A stretch of DNA of 64,000 nucleotides from Rhodococcus triatomae. GTDB taxonomy: Bacteria > Actinomycetota > Actinomycetes > Mycobacteriales > Mycobacteriaceae. Below the pieces are notes generated by a model that was not told the DNA's origin, ran no database searches, and worked only from the letters and a program-made list of their open reading frames with translations. The position numbers and the translations under genes were made by a program. The first letter of the stretch is position 1. Every line of letters begins with the position of its first letter. Below are positions 48,982-55,261 of this stretch, one piece after another. The DNA lies in assembly GCF_014217785.1 (NCBI RefSeq), contig NZ_CP048814.1:1798001-1862000 (forward strand). The letters are read 5' to 3'.

Positions 48982-50409
48982 TCAGGCGGTGGCGGCGCGG
49001 GGACGGGCGTCGCGAAACTGCCGGTCCCGCCCCTTCGGCGATCGGGGCACCGCCTCTTTGCCTGCCAGCGCGGCCCGGTAGCGGCGCATGAACTCGGCCG
49101 CGATGGCACTGCCCTCGGCGTCCCCGGTCACCGCGTCACCGGTGGTCACCCGCCAGGAGAACAGCCGGTCCGCGAGGACCTGCTCGATGTCCGCGTACGC
49201 CGCGTCACCGGCGAGGTTGTGCTGCTCACCCGGATCCACCCGCAGATCGTAGAGTTCCCGGGCCGACCGTGGCCTACGGTGCGAGCGGCCGATCGCCCGG
49301 CCCGAGGGACTGTCGGCGATGTCGAGCGGCAGCTCGAGCGCACTGCGCGAGGCGAAGTTCTCGATGTAACTGAACTCGGCCGTACGGATCGCGCGGATCG
49401 GGTCGTAGCTGTCGTGGTAGTTCTTCTGGGTGAACACCGCGTCCCGGACCTCGGTGTCGCGGTCCGACCCGGCGAACACGGCGGCGTGCGAGACGCCGTC
49501 GACGTCCTCCGGCACGTCCACACCGAGCAGTTCGAGCAGCGTCGGCACCAGATCGACGCCGCTGAACAACCCGTCGTAGCGAACCGGCGACACCGACCTC
49601 GACCGCGGCGGCCGGACGATGAAGGAGATCCCGGTGCCCCGGTCGTAGAGCGTGGACTTGGCGCCGGGGAAGGCCTCGCCGTGATCGGTGAAGAAGACCA
49701 CCCACGTGTCCTCGGCGAACCCGGACTCCTCGAGGGCATCGAGCAGCCGGCCGGTGGCCGCGTCGGCGACCTCGATGCTGCCGTGGAAGGCCGCGAGGTC
49801 CGCCCGCACGTCCGCGGTGTCCGGGAGATACGACGGCACGTCGAACGAGTGAGGATCGCCGACCGGGTACCGCTGGGGCGAGTAGGGCCGGTGCACCTCG
49901 AAGAAACCGGTGTTGAGCAGGAACGGGCTGTCATCGCCCGCGCGGCGTCGCTCCGCCGCCTCGTGGAGCCACTCCTGCGCCCGGTCCACCACGTAGTCGC
50001 AGTCCGAGTCGGTGACGTCGAACTCGTCGTACCCGAGCCGCCCCGGGGTCGCGGATTCGTGCTGCATCCCGAACAGGGCGCTGCTCCAGCCCTGCTCACC
50101 GAGCAGCTGCGGCAGGGTGCGCACCCCCTCGCGGTACTCCCAACCGTGGTGGGCCAGGCCCACCACGCCGTTGCTGTGCGGGTAGCGGCCGGTCAGCAGC
50201 GAGCCACGTGACGGAGAGCAGAGCGGGGCGGTGGCGTGAGCGCGGGTGAGCAGGACTCCCTCGGCGGCGAGCGCGTCCAGGGCCGGGCTCTTCGCGCCCG
50301 AGGCGCCGTAGAGCTCGAGATGGCGGCCGAGATCGTGCCAGTGGACGAGGAGTACGTTCTCCCGCGTCGTATCGGCCCCGGTCACCGCTGCGGCATCGAT
50401 GCCTGTCAT
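48982..50409 (-). CDS. Type I sulfatase with formylglycine motif
   Basis: 475 residues. The modification motif C-S-P-S-R (Cys64 in PLCSPSRGSLLTGRYPH) is intact, so a formylglycine can form. Metal ligands are visible in LLVHWHDLGRHL and FFTDHGEAFPG, and a C-terminal ELYDLRVDPGEQHNLAG is typical of alkaline-phosphatase-like sulfatases of the heparan N-sulfatase/choline-sulfatase-like group. No signal peptide, so it is cytosolic. It lies 148 bp after the formylglycine-generating enzyme gene on the same strand and downstream of sulfation genes. The substrate, possibly a sulfated sugar, is unknown. Confidence 0.92.
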   Translation of the reverse strand: MTGIDAAAVTGADTTRENVLLVHWHDLGRHLELYGASGAKSPALDALAAEGVLLTRAHATAPLCSPSRGSLLTGRYPHSNGVVGLAHHGWEYREGVRTLPQLLGEQGWSSALFGMQHESATPGRLGYDEFDVTDSDCDYVVDRAQEWLHEAAERRRAGDDSPFLLNTGFFEVHRPYSPQRYPVGDPHSFDVPSYLPDTADVRADLAAFHGSIEVADAATGRLLDALEESGFAEDTWVVFFTDHGEAFPGAKSTLYDRGTGISFIVRPPRSRSVSPVRYDGLFSGVDLVPTLLELLGVDVPEDVDGVSHAAVFAGSDRDTEVRDAVFTQKNYHDSYDPIRAIRTAEFSYIENFASRSALELPLDIADSPSGRAIGRSHRRPRSARELYDLRVDPGEQHNLAGDAAYADIEQVLADRLFSWRVTTGDAVTGDAEGSAIAAEFMRRYRAALAGKEAVPRSPKGRDRQFRDARPRAATA

Positions 50410-50557
50410 TCACCATCACCCTTCGGCCTTCGATCGGCCCCCGCGGTGTCCACGTCCTCGTGCCGGGCCGGGCGGCCGATGCCCTCGTTCGAGGTTAGTG
50501 GGGCCGTCCGGCCAGGGGCGGGTTCTGCTCGAGCAGATTCGAACTCCCCGCTCCGGA

Positions 50558-53523: not shown

Positions 53524-54467
53524 CAGAAGTACCCCTCACGTTTACGGTCTTCCATGGCCGCCTCGGACGTTCGGTCGTCGGCTCGGGTCTCGCCCCGCTC
53601 GGACACCCGCGCCGCCGAGATCTCGGAAATCACCGCCTCGATGTCCGTCGCGGTGGAGCGGACGGCGCCGGTGATGGTCAGGTCGCCGACGGTGCGGTAG
53701 CGCACCCACTCACGCGCGGGCACCTCGTTCCCGGCGGGCCAGGTGTACTCCGACGTCGCCAGCAGGATCCCGTCCCGCTCGAACACGTCACGCTCGTGGG
53801 CGAAGTAGATCGACGGCAGCGCCAGGTTCTCGAGTGCGATGTACCGCCACACGTCGAGTTCGGTCCAGTTGCTCAGCGGAAACACCCGCACCTGTTCCCC
53901 GCGCCGGACCCGCCCGTTGTACAACGACCAGGGTTCCGGTCGCTGGGCACGCGGGTCCCACTGGCCGAACTCGTCCCGGAAACTGAGCACCCGTTCCTTG
54001 GCCCGTGCGCGTTCCTCGTCGCGGCGGGCGCCGCCGAAGGCCGCATCGAAGCCACCGGCCTCGAGCGCGTCGAGCAGGGTCCGGGTCTGCAGCCGGTTCC
54101 GCGAGCCGCCGGCCCCGGCGGTCTCGGTGACCCGGCCGCTGTCGATCGCCTCCTGCACGGAGGCGACGACGAGCCGGTGCCCACCGTCGGCGAGTCGCCT
54201 GTCCCGGAATGCCAGCACCTCGGGGAAGTTGTGTCCGGTGTCCACGTGCAGCACGGGAAAGGGCACCGGGTTGGGACGGAATGCCTTCTCGGCCAGCCGG
54301 AGCAGGACGATCGAGTCCTTACCTGCGGAGAACAGCAGGACCGGGCGTTCGAGTTCGGCGACCACCTCGCGGATGATGTGCACCGACTCGGCCTCGAGGG
54401 CACGCAGTTCCTCCACGTGGCGGATGTCGGGGGCGACGGTCTCGGCACTCGTCTCGGTGGTACTCAC
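53523..54467 (-). CDS. cysD: Sulfate adenylyltransferase subunit 2 (CysD)
   Basis: 314 residues, PP-loop ATP pyrophosphatase. RPVLLFSAGKDSIVLLRLA carries the SxGKDS loop; HVDTGHNFPEVL, GGARRDEERARAKER and FPLSNWTELDVWRYI are diagnostic. It adenylates sulfate together with CysN to form APS. The GTG start overlaps the stf0 stop (GTGA) and its own stop overlaps the cysNC start, so translation of stf0, cysD and cysNC is coupled. Confidence 0.96.
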   Translation of the reverse strand: MSTTETSAETVAPDIRHVEELRALEAESVHIIREVVAELERPVLLFSAGKDSIVLLRLAEKAFRPNPVPFPVLHVDTGHNFPEVLAFRDRRLADGGHRLVVASVQEAIDSGRVTETAGAGGSRNRLQTRTLLDALEAGGFDAAFGGARRDEERARAKERVLSFRDEFGQWDPRAQRPEPWSLYNGRVRRGEQVRVFPLSNWTELDVWRYIALENLALPSIYFAHERDVFERDGILLATSEYTWPAGNEVPAREWVRYRTVGDLTITGAVRSTATDIEAVISEISAARVSERGETRADDRTSEAAMEDRKREGYF

Positions 54468-55261
54468 AGCGGCAGTCCTCTCGACGCGGCATCCGCGCGG
54501 TAGCGTTCGGCCCATTCGTTCGAGCGGAGATCTCCCTGCTTCTCCAGGGCAGGCGGTGGAGCAGCTGCCGGATCGAGGCCCAGCGCCTCGAGGATGCCGG
54601 CGACGACCTTCGTGGTATCGCTGGTCAGCTCCTCGTACCCGACCTCGAGGGGGCGAATGTCGTTGTCCTCGAACCATTTTCGCCAGCCGAATTCCTGATT
54701 CCGCAGCTCCGTCACCAGATGGGCGATCCCGTCCGGGTGGTACCGGGCACGGGCGTCGACCTCCGGGTCCGCCCGCCCGCACCACACTCTCGTCTGCACC
54801 GCGCGCCAGAACGACACCGCCTGCTCGACGACGTCGTCCCGCGTGACCTTGACCCACAGCACGTCCCCGAGGACGTCGTCGATCGCGGACCGCAGGTCGC
54901 TTCCCGACCGGTTCGGCAGTCCGGCCGCGCGGTCGACGAGCAGTGGCGTCTGGTTCCACATCAGCTTGCCGCCCCACACCCCGTTGGCGCTCTTCCCCGC
55001 GCGAAGGATCCGCGCGCGCCAGTCGACCGCGGACTCGGTGGTCGGCGTCCCGGGGTCGAGCGGATCGAGCAGCTCGAGCACGTCCGGGTTCGTCACCGGG
55101 GCGAACCACCCACGCGGCTGCGGAGCCAGGCCCGTCTCGGGCAGGTACTGGAAGAACTCCTCGGGGTTGCCCGCGACGCCCGTGGCGCGCAGCGATTCGA
55201 CGAGCAGGGTGCTGCCACTGCGCTGCGAGGCCAGGACGAGATAGGAGCCGGGTGTTGCCAT
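54464..55261 (-). CDS. stf0: Trehalose 2-sulfotransferase (Stf0-like)
   Basis: 265 residues. YLVLASQRSGSTLLVESLRATGVAGNPEEFFQYL (in parts; the PAPS 5'-phosphosulfate loop is SQRSGST and the likely catalytic base is Glu35), GVWGGKLMWNQTPLLVDRA and SFWRAVQTRVW are almost the same as mycobacterial Stf0, which makes trehalose-2-sulfate, the core of sulfolipids. It is the first gene of a five-gene set and is coupled to cysD. Trehalose as acceptor is inferred from this similarity. Confidence 0.92.
   Translation of the reverse strand: MATPGSYLVLASQRSGSTLLVESLRATGVAGNPEEFFQYLPETGLAPQPRGWFAPVTNPDVLELLDPLDPGTPTTESAVDWRARILRAGKSANGVWGGKLMWNQTPLLVDRAAGLPNRSGSDLRSAIDDVLGDVLWVKVTRDDVVEQAVSFWRAVQTRVWCGRADPEVDARARYHPDGIAHLVTELRNQEFGWRKWFEDNDIRPLEVGYEELTSDTTKVVAGILEALGLDPAAAPPPALEKQGDLRSNEWAERYRADAASRGLPL

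What the first reader, a model, noticed from the sequence alone, without database searches (positions are those of the whole stretch)
48982..55261. One transcription unit that both makes and removes a sulfate ester: stf0 - cysD - cysNC - FGE - sulfatase
Stf0-like sulfotransferase, both PAPS-forming enzymes, a formylglycine-generating enzyme and an intact C-S-P-S-R sulfatase follow each other on the minus strand. The first three genes overlap by 1-4 nt and FGE starts 17 nt after cysNC. In mycobacteria Stf0 and cysDNC are known, but I do not recall a dedicated sulfatase plus FGE placed directly behind them. The sulfatase has no signal peptide, so it would act in the cytosol where trehalose-2-sulfate is made. 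Hypothesis: a reversible sulfation cycle (storage, signalling or osmolyte control), or sulfatase-based sulfur scavenging feeding straight into sulfate activation.
Basis: partly seen in the sequence, partly recalled or inferred. Interest (0 to 1): 0.8.

Follow-up and report, generated by a model that had tools for sequence, protein, structure and literature searches.

The report
Sulfated-trehalose make-and-remove gene cluster
A Rhodococcus genome carries, side by side, the enzymes that put a sulfate on the sugar trehalose and an enzyme that very probably takes it off again; the maker and remover genes nearly always occur together in mycobacteria and their relatives, which suggests a substrate for a sulfatase whose target was unknown.

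Summary
The sulfatase lies 148 nt behind FGE, so a single five-gene transcript is not shown. Sulfatase (AtsG-type) and Stf0 are tied together far beyond this strain. In 401 genomes of the family, 137 have both, 5 only the sulfatase, 1 only Stf0 and 258 neither. In 112 of the 137 they lie within 9 kb, in several gene orders; 7 keep both over 700 kb apart. A tree-based test supports joint gain and loss (median p 0.004). By sequence profile, the sulfatase's nearest solved relatives are S1_8 sulfatases and human sulfamidase, which cut sulfate at C2 of a pyranose. Stf0 puts sulfate on O2 of trehalose. Published proteomics of Rhodococcus qingshengii show sulfatase, CysD2 and Stf0 of a corresponding cluster raised when sulfate is not the sulfur source. 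Best explanation: a cytosolic trehalose-2-sulfate 2-O-sulfatase opposing Stf0 and returning sulfate and trehalose. No assay exists, and general ester scavenging is not excluded. The pairing is not unique to this strain; in M. tuberculosis AtsG (Rv0296c) neighbours Stf0 by locus tag (Rv0295c recalled), and AtsG's native substrate is published as unidentified.

The parts
54464..55261 (-). stf0, trehalose 2-sulfotransferase
   Evidence: NCBIfam NF047724 429.3 bits (cut-off 400); only solved chain matched at E <= 0.001 is 1tex Stf0, E 2.2e-102
53523..54467 (-). cysD, ATP sulfurylase small subunit
   Evidence: TIGR02039 427.3 bits (cut-off 396.6)
51484..53523 (-). cysNC, ATP sulfurylase GTPase fused to APS kinase
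   Evidence: NF004035 760.5 bits (cut-off 715); PF01583 205 bits
50558..51466 (-). FGE, formylglycine-generating enzyme; the only true FGE found in this genome
   Evidence: PF03781 232.6 bits; 6muj FGE E 3.2e-84; the only other PF03781 hit of the genome passes the EgtB equivalog (456 against 360)
48982..50409 (-). AtsG-type cytosolic type I sulfatase, proposed trehalose-2-sulfate 2-O-sulfohydrolase
50206..50220 (-). C-S-P-S-R formylglycine motif (residues 64-68)
   Evidence: C[ST]P[SA]R in 119 of 119 loci picked by two other motifs, (species repeated)
50410..50557 (-). 148-nt FGE-sulfatase gap with a -10-like TAACCT (50492-50497); possible own promoter of the sulfatase
   Evidence: TANNNT-type hexamers before the sulfatase also seen by eye in G445 and Williamsia; not tested statistically, and the sigma-70 scan does not report it
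55268..55273 (-). TAGGGT, -10-like hexamer 6 nt before the stf0 ATG (leaderless-type promoter, inferred by eye)
   Evidence: not reported by the sigma-70 scan
55321..55336 (-). TCAATAGTTTGAATCA, candidate activator site upstream of stf0
   Evidence: TCAA-N8-ATCA within 250 nt upstream of stf0 in 12 of 92 loci (shuffled mean 0.15; 9 different genomes, Rhodococcus and Williamsia only), 0 of 125 upstream of the sulfatase; one match in the window where 0.35 is expected by chance

Best explanation
The cluster encodes a cytosolic make-and-remove cycle on trehalose 2-sulfate. CysD/CysNC turn sulfate into PAPS, and Stf0 moves the sulfuryl group to O2 of trehalose. The AtsG-type sulfatase, matured by the neighbouring FGE, hydrolyses the same O2 ester and returns trehalose and sulfate. 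Shown: gene identities, co-occurrence, linkage, lack of a signal peptide, kinship to C2-specific sulfatases. Inferred: that the substrate is trehalose 2-sulfate (or its close derivative), and that the physiological point is to keep trehalose 2-sulfate as a drawable or adjustable pool, above all when external sulfate is short.
Confidence: 0.57

Rival explanations
1. The sulfatase is a cytosolic scavenging enzyme for imported sulfate esters (perhaps 2-sulfated sugars in general). It belongs to the low-sulfate response and sits near Stf0 because all these genes use sulfate.
For: Directly behind sbp-cysT-cysW-cysA in R. tibetensis (L136) and behind a similar gene end in other Rhodococcus loci; beside cysK and cysE in one Mycobacterium (L106); listed as 'sulfur acquisition' and raised without sulfate in PMC8557817; kept without Stf0 in 5 of 142 family genomes.
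Against: A general scavenger should be common without Stf0, yet 137 of 142 carriers have Stf0 and 258 of 259 non-carriers lack it. An assimilatory cysH-cysD-cysN locus lies elsewhere in this genome. Scavenging sulfatases are often exported (recalled); this one is not.
Confidence: 0.22
2. Salvage variant: the sulfatase strips trehalose 2-sulfate that returns to the cytosol after turnover of sulfated trehalose lipids, so that trehalose can be re-used.
For: Cytosolic enzyme; R. opacus S8 is annotated with trehalose 2-sulfotransferase and papA2-type acyltransferases (PMC9229178, passages), so sulfated trehalose lipids may exist in the genus.
Against: In the flank families that I looked at I recognised no trehalose importer or acyltransferase conserved beside the cluster (45 commonest families read by eye); import of trehalose 2-sulfate is not known to me.
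Confidence: 0.12
3. The pairing reflects shared regulation or hitch-hiking only; the sulfatase acts on an unrelated sulfated metabolite of the same bacteria.
For: AtsG is reported as an arylsulfatase with unidentified native substrate (PMC3141025, passages); five family carriers lack Stf0.
Against: Pairing survives in genomes where the genes are far apart (7 shown), many rearrangements, and apparent horizontal transfer; C2 regiospecificity of the S1_8 relatives fits Stf0's product.
Confidence: 0.09

Closest known systems
Mycobacterium tuberculosis AtsG (Rv0296c) next to Stf0 (Rv0295c)
   Same: Same two gene types side by side; AtsG is a type I sulfatase with reported arylsulfatase activity (PMC3141025 passages; original paper not seen). 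The Rv0295c = Stf0 assignment, and with it the adjacency, is recalled.
   Different: cysDNC and FGE lie elsewhere in M. tuberculosis (recalled). The AtsG sequence was not fetched, so orthology is inferred from related synteny in other mycobacteria.
Rhodococcus qingshengii IGTS8 peg167-170 (sulfatase, CysN2C, CysD2, Stf0)
   Same: Same gene types under consecutive numbers; sulfatase, CysD2 and Stf0 listed as raised in the dibenzothiophene culture (PMC8557817, section 7 and passages).
   Different: The text I saw gives no orientation for the sulfatase and names no FGE. The authors list the sulfatase under sulfur acquisition, not as Stf0's opposite.
SulfAtlas S1_8 sulfatases (S1_8A/B/C of Pseudoalteromonas distincta) and human sulfamidase SGSH
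   Same: Closest by sequence profile and, for SGSH, by fold; all act at C2 of a pyranose (PMC12549532, PMC4014121).
   Different: They work outside the cytosol on polysaccharide fragments or heparan sulfate. The AtsG group has H-D for the metal pair and G-M-Q-H-E where SGSH has G-K-K-H.
2-sulfotrehalose osmolyte of haloalkaliphilic archaea
   Same: A trehalose sulfated at position 2 as a free intracellular osmolyte (PMC2881530 passages).
   Different: The archaeal genes were not compared; no sulfatase partner was looked for.

Membership tests
Trehalose 2-sulfotransferase (Stf0) | NCBIfam equivalog NF047724 above cut-off | tested here: met
   429.3 bits against 400
Trehalose 2-sulfotransferase (Stf0) | Sulfation of trehalose at O2 | not testable with these tools
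   Used with 1tex Stf0 in PMC10638397 (passages); not assayed for this protein
Formylglycine-generating enzyme (aerobic FGE) | FGE domain with the two C-terminal cysteines | tested here: met
   PF03781 232.6 bits; LCHESYC aligned to LCHDSYC of 6muj; that these are the catalytic cysteines is recalled
Type I (S1) sulfatase | C-x-P-x-R formylglycine motif in a sulfatase domain | tested here: met
   CSPSR; PF00884 132.2 bits
Type I (S1) sulfatase | Canonical metal and sulfate residues (Asp-Asp pair, GKxH lysine, later His, Lys/Arg, Asp-Asn/His) | tested here: inconclusive
   D26, R68, H117, H173, D242, H243 and K251 are present and invariant in 26 of 26 aligned; the first Asp is H25 and the lysine position is M115 in 26 of 26 (partner residues). 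S1_8A also departs at these two positions
SulfAtlas subfamily S1_8 | Closest relatives by sequence are S1_8 members | tested here: met
   Profile ranks: S1_8A, SGSH, S1_8B, then a gap to 6.5e-39; S1_8C lies lower, 4e-34, behind non-S1_8 enzymes
SulfAtlas subfamily S1_8 | Closest relatives by fold are S1_8 members | tested here: inconclusive
SulfAtlas subfamily S1_8 | Formal assignment by the SulfAtlas classification | not tested
   SulfAtlas was not available
SulfAtlas subfamily S1_8 | Hydrolysis at the C2 position | not testable with these tools
   Needs an assay
AtsG of M. tuberculosis | Orthology to Rv0296c | tested here: inconclusive
   Sequence not fetched; relatives next to stf0, some with an EsxH-like family (named by eye) several kb away in mycobacterial loci, match the recalled Rv0288-Rv0296c order
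Single five-gene operon | Co-transcription of all five genes | not testable with these tools
   148-nt gap with a -10-like hexamer before the sulfatase; no terminator-like site found in 48700-55600

The most novel reading that the evidence does not exclude
Wherever Stf0 makes trehalose 2-sulfate in the mycobacterial family, a dedicated cytosolic 2-O-sulfatase (AtsG) unmakes it. Trehalose 2-sulfate would then be a cycled metabolite, a drawable sulfate and trehalose buffer used under sulfate shortage, and not merely the first step to sulfolipid-1. This would give a substrate to one of the M. tuberculosis sulfatases whose substrates are reported as unknown.
Probability: 0.35. Interest if true: 0.75.

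Novelty: new variant of a known kind. Interest (0 to 1): 0.6.

Why it matters
M. tuberculosis has nine putative sulfatases, introduced in 2013 as without known function or substrate in the paper that then characterised one of them, Rv3406 (PMC3675115, passages). AtsG was listed in 2011 with an unidentified native substrate (PMC3141025, passages). Why bacteria that make no sulfolipid-1 carry Stf0 is also open (recalled). The near-obligate pairing plus the C2 regiospecificity of the sulfatase's relatives turns both into one cheap test, because trehalose 2-sulfate can be made enzymatically with 1tex Stf0 (PMC10638397, passages). If right, trehalose 2-sulfate becomes a turned-over metabolite with its own off-switch, and sulfolipid flux in mycobacteria gains a control point.

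Tried and rejected
Upstream exporters as part of the module: an ABC pair (55376-59256), MMPL (59314-61668), TetR and Rrf2 genes lie on the same strand ahead of stf0. Of these, the ABC ORF 55376-58723, MMPL, TetR and Rrf2 found no counterpart in the other 134 loci compared, so they were left out. The second ABC gene (57415-59256) was not picked as an ORF by that script and was not tested.

Decayed sulfatase in Stf0-less genomes: the tool flagged an in-frame stop in three of the five sulfatase-only genomes. The reading frames show long intact ORFs with the stop at the gene's end, so the idea that the sulfatase decays after Stf0 loss was dropped.

A shared operator for stf0 and sulfatase: TCAA-N8-ATCA was found upstream of stf0 in 12 of 92 loci (9 different genomes) and in 0 of 125 upstream of the sulfatase. 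In the whole window one match is found where 0.35 is expected, and 29 of 100 shuffles have at least one. No common regulation could be shown from sequence.

Other conserved neighbours that would explain what trehalose 2-sulfate is for: none across all genera among the families read. Sulfate-transporter-like genes recur in 8 loci of Rhodococcus, Antrihabitans and one Mycobacterium; family models were run only for R. tibetensis. An EsxH-like family, named by eye, recurs in 37 loci.

Print search: the library held no paper with both Rv0295c and Rv0296c. Searches for Stf0 + trehalose-2-sulfate + sulfatase, AtsG + sulfotransferase + mycobacteri, trehalose 2-sulfate spellings (40 of 65 listed), Stf0 + mycobacteri and four-of-six terms gave no paper whose listing, or whose passages where I read them, proposes AtsG as a trehalose-2-sulfate sulfatase. 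One search was too broad to help (6,298 papers, 5 listed). The 2002 review 'Sulfotransferases and sulfatases in mycobacteria' and the 2009 AtsG paper are cited by others, but I did not see them; they may remark on the adjacency.

A control without Stf0-sulfatase linkage: no clade in the 78-genome tree shows repeated joint loss from an unlinked state, so linkage cannot be fully separated from function. The 78 genomes were chosen (42 order-wide family genomes, the other 27 sampled genomes of genus g1, the five further discordant genomes, four cluster relatives), not random. cysD does not bear on the transfer argument: it is 85% identical to Williamsia and 82-86% to Rhodococcus. No gene trees of the cluster were built, so transfer rests on identities alone.
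Full report
What is there. The window is part of a 4.77 Mb single-contig genome. In the same way g76 is Williamsia, g5 Gordonia and g2 Mycobacterium. The five genes of the finding are intact, on the minus strand, at the stated coordinates. stf0/cysD overlap by 4 nt, cysD/cysNC by 1 nt, FGE starts 17 nt after cysNC, and the sulfatase starts 148 nt after FGE. 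Stf0 passes the trehalose 2-sulfotransferase equivalog model and aligns to 1tex over 262 of its 265 residues. FGE matches the FGE 6muj with both C-terminal cysteines. The sulfatase carries CSPSR and has no hydrophobic N-terminus.

Genome context. PF01507 finds four proteins: an assimilatory cysH and cysD followed by a cysN (L235), a second cysD-cysNC with an inositol-phosphatase-family gene that resembles CysQ below its cut-off, about 3 kb from a Sulfotransfer_3 gene (L236), and the cysD of the window. So the window's cysDNC is not the genome's assimilatory copy and is best read as a PAPS supply for Stf0 (inference). PF03781 finds two proteins: the window's FGE and an EgtB (456 bits against 360). 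The window's FGE is therefore the only true FGE found, and would also have to serve the second type I sulfatase at 300492-301754.

Co-occurrence. In an order-wide draw of 249 genomes, 27 have the sulfatase at E <= 1e-30 and 30 have a Stf0 match at E <= 1e-20. Among the 42 genomes of the window's family in that draw, 25 have both (Stf0 at E <= 1e-80) and 17 neither. Outside the family, two genomes have the sulfatase without Stf0 (G138 at 62% identity, G025 at 42%), and five have only weak Stf0 matches (34-39%) without the sulfatase. In a family-wide draw of 401 genomes (sulfatase E <= 1e-60, Stf0 E <= 1e-40), 137 have both, 5 only the sulfatase, 1 only Stf0, 258 neither (Fisher 2e-100, not corrected for kinship). 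In genus g1, 28 genomes: 16 both, 11 neither, 1 sulfatase only, 0 Stf0 only. The single Stf0-only genome (G471) has stf0 147 nt from a contig end and a cysNC match split between two frames, so a missed sulfatase is possible there. The g1 sulfatase-only genome (G448) keeps a cysNC match that starts at residue 172 and no stf0; the only cysD in the stretch is a distant one (57%) of a second pair.

Kinship correction. A DnaJ + HrcA tree of 78 chosen genomes gives 12 independent pairs (starred branches) that differ in Stf0. In these the sulfatase goes the same way in 9.3 on average, the other way in 0.3, and does not differ in 2.5; the sign test has median p 0.0039, range 0.002-0.022. Asked the other way round it gives 10 pairs, 9.2 the same way, 0.3 opposite, 0.5 no difference. 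The set includes all six discordant genomes of the 401, so it leans against the claim.

Linkage. Of the 137 genomes with both, 66 have the sulfatase directly upstream of stf0 on the same strand (gap <= 400 bp), 6 the same with a 0.6-2.1 kb gap, 34 convergent within 9 kb, and 6 have stf0 upstream as in the window; 7 have them over 700 kb apart on one contig and 18 on different contigs. Of the best 80 of 297 named loci (some cut short by contig ends), 51 have stf0 and 17 have FGE in the fetched stretch, and 9 hold all five genes. These nine are one Rhodococcus (UNC23MFCrub1.1) in the window's order and strand, one Nocardia and five Rhodococcus/Rhodococcoides with FGE divergent from the sulfatase, and two Gordonia. 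Unnamed G238, G191 and G261 hold all five with the sulfatase convergent. So the module is real, its order is fluid, and the window's exact order is rare.

Horizontal movement. The window's stf0, cysNC and sulfatase are 81-84%, 84-87% and 80% identical to those of two Williamsia genomes whose DnaJ is 70% identical. They are only 59-61%, 75-77% and 55-63% identical to those of four Rhodococcus genomes whose DnaJ is 83-87% identical. These three genes thus seem to have moved together; cysD (85% against 82-86%) does not decide. The Williamsia clusters show no FGE match in the stretch.

Regulation. PMC8557817 (section 7 whole, otherwise passages) reports for R. qingshengii IGTS8 a sulfatase (peg167), CysN2C (168), CysD2 (169) and Stf0 (170). 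Sulfatase, CysD2 and Stf0 are listed as upregulated with dibenzothiophene as sulfur source against sulfate. CysD2 was exclusive to that culture in all phases, Stf0 in early log and stationary phase, while assimilatory CysD1N1 did not change significantly. This is independent evidence that sulfatase and Stf0 belong to one response. It also means that making and removing are not separated by expression, so any cycle must be set by metabolites, or the sulfatase serves sulfate supply at that moment.

Verdict. The interpretation as a reversible sulfation cycle is the best reading but unproven, with about 0.57 for trehalose 2-sulfate (or a close derivative) as the physiological substrate and about 0.22 for general cytosolic ester scavenging. 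The first figure was 0.58 in a draft; I lowered it slightly because the fold ranking separates S1_8 less cleanly than I had written. The claim that such a pairing is unrecorded in mycobacteria is wrong in itself, since the adjacency is common there. I found no print source in the searched library that draws the functional conclusion (searches named in Tried and rejected).

Noticed in passing
G000:C1:553000-572000 (L236): A second cysD-cysNC with a CysQ-like phosphatase lies about 3 kb from a Sulfotransfer_3 gene, so this genome may have another PAPS module for a different sulfotransferase.
   Followed up: partly
window 59314-61668, 57415-59256, 55376 onward: MMPL protein and an ABC exporter pair directly upstream of stf0 on the same strand; no counterpart of the MMPL gene or of the ABC ORF tested near the cluster in other genomes.
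   Followed up: partly
window 62485-62958: Rrf2-family regulator (PF02082) about 7 kb upstream of stf0; an Rrf2-type regulator (peg394) rises in the same condition as Stf0 in R. qingshengii (PMC8557817).
   Followed up: no
L136:2835-8012: In R. tibetensis the sulfatase is the gene behind sbp-cysT-cysW-cysA; similar ends precede it in other Rhodococcus loci.
   Followed up: partly
L036:9331-10615 (G178): In one mycobacterial genome the sulfatase match is split between two reading frames upstream of a full-length stf0 match; left as found.
   Followed up: no
L134:13223-14686 (G448): Rhodococcus genome whose cysNC match starts only at residue 172 and which has no stf0, while the sulfatase frame is open.
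   Followed up: partly
window 53440-53500: A 9-nt tandem repeat encodes a T-G-T run in the N-terminal extension of CysNC; a second short duplication (GTEPPV) lies within the protein.
   Followed up: no
L107:9221-13181 (G138) and L209: Outside the family (L209 is Amycolatopsis tucumanensis), sulfatase, FGE and a second distant sulfatase (30%) sit together without Stf0 in the stretch.
   Followed up: partly
window 55321-55336: TCAA-N8-ATCA upstream of stf0, shared with Williamsia and some Rhodococcus; candidate activator site.
   Followed up: partly
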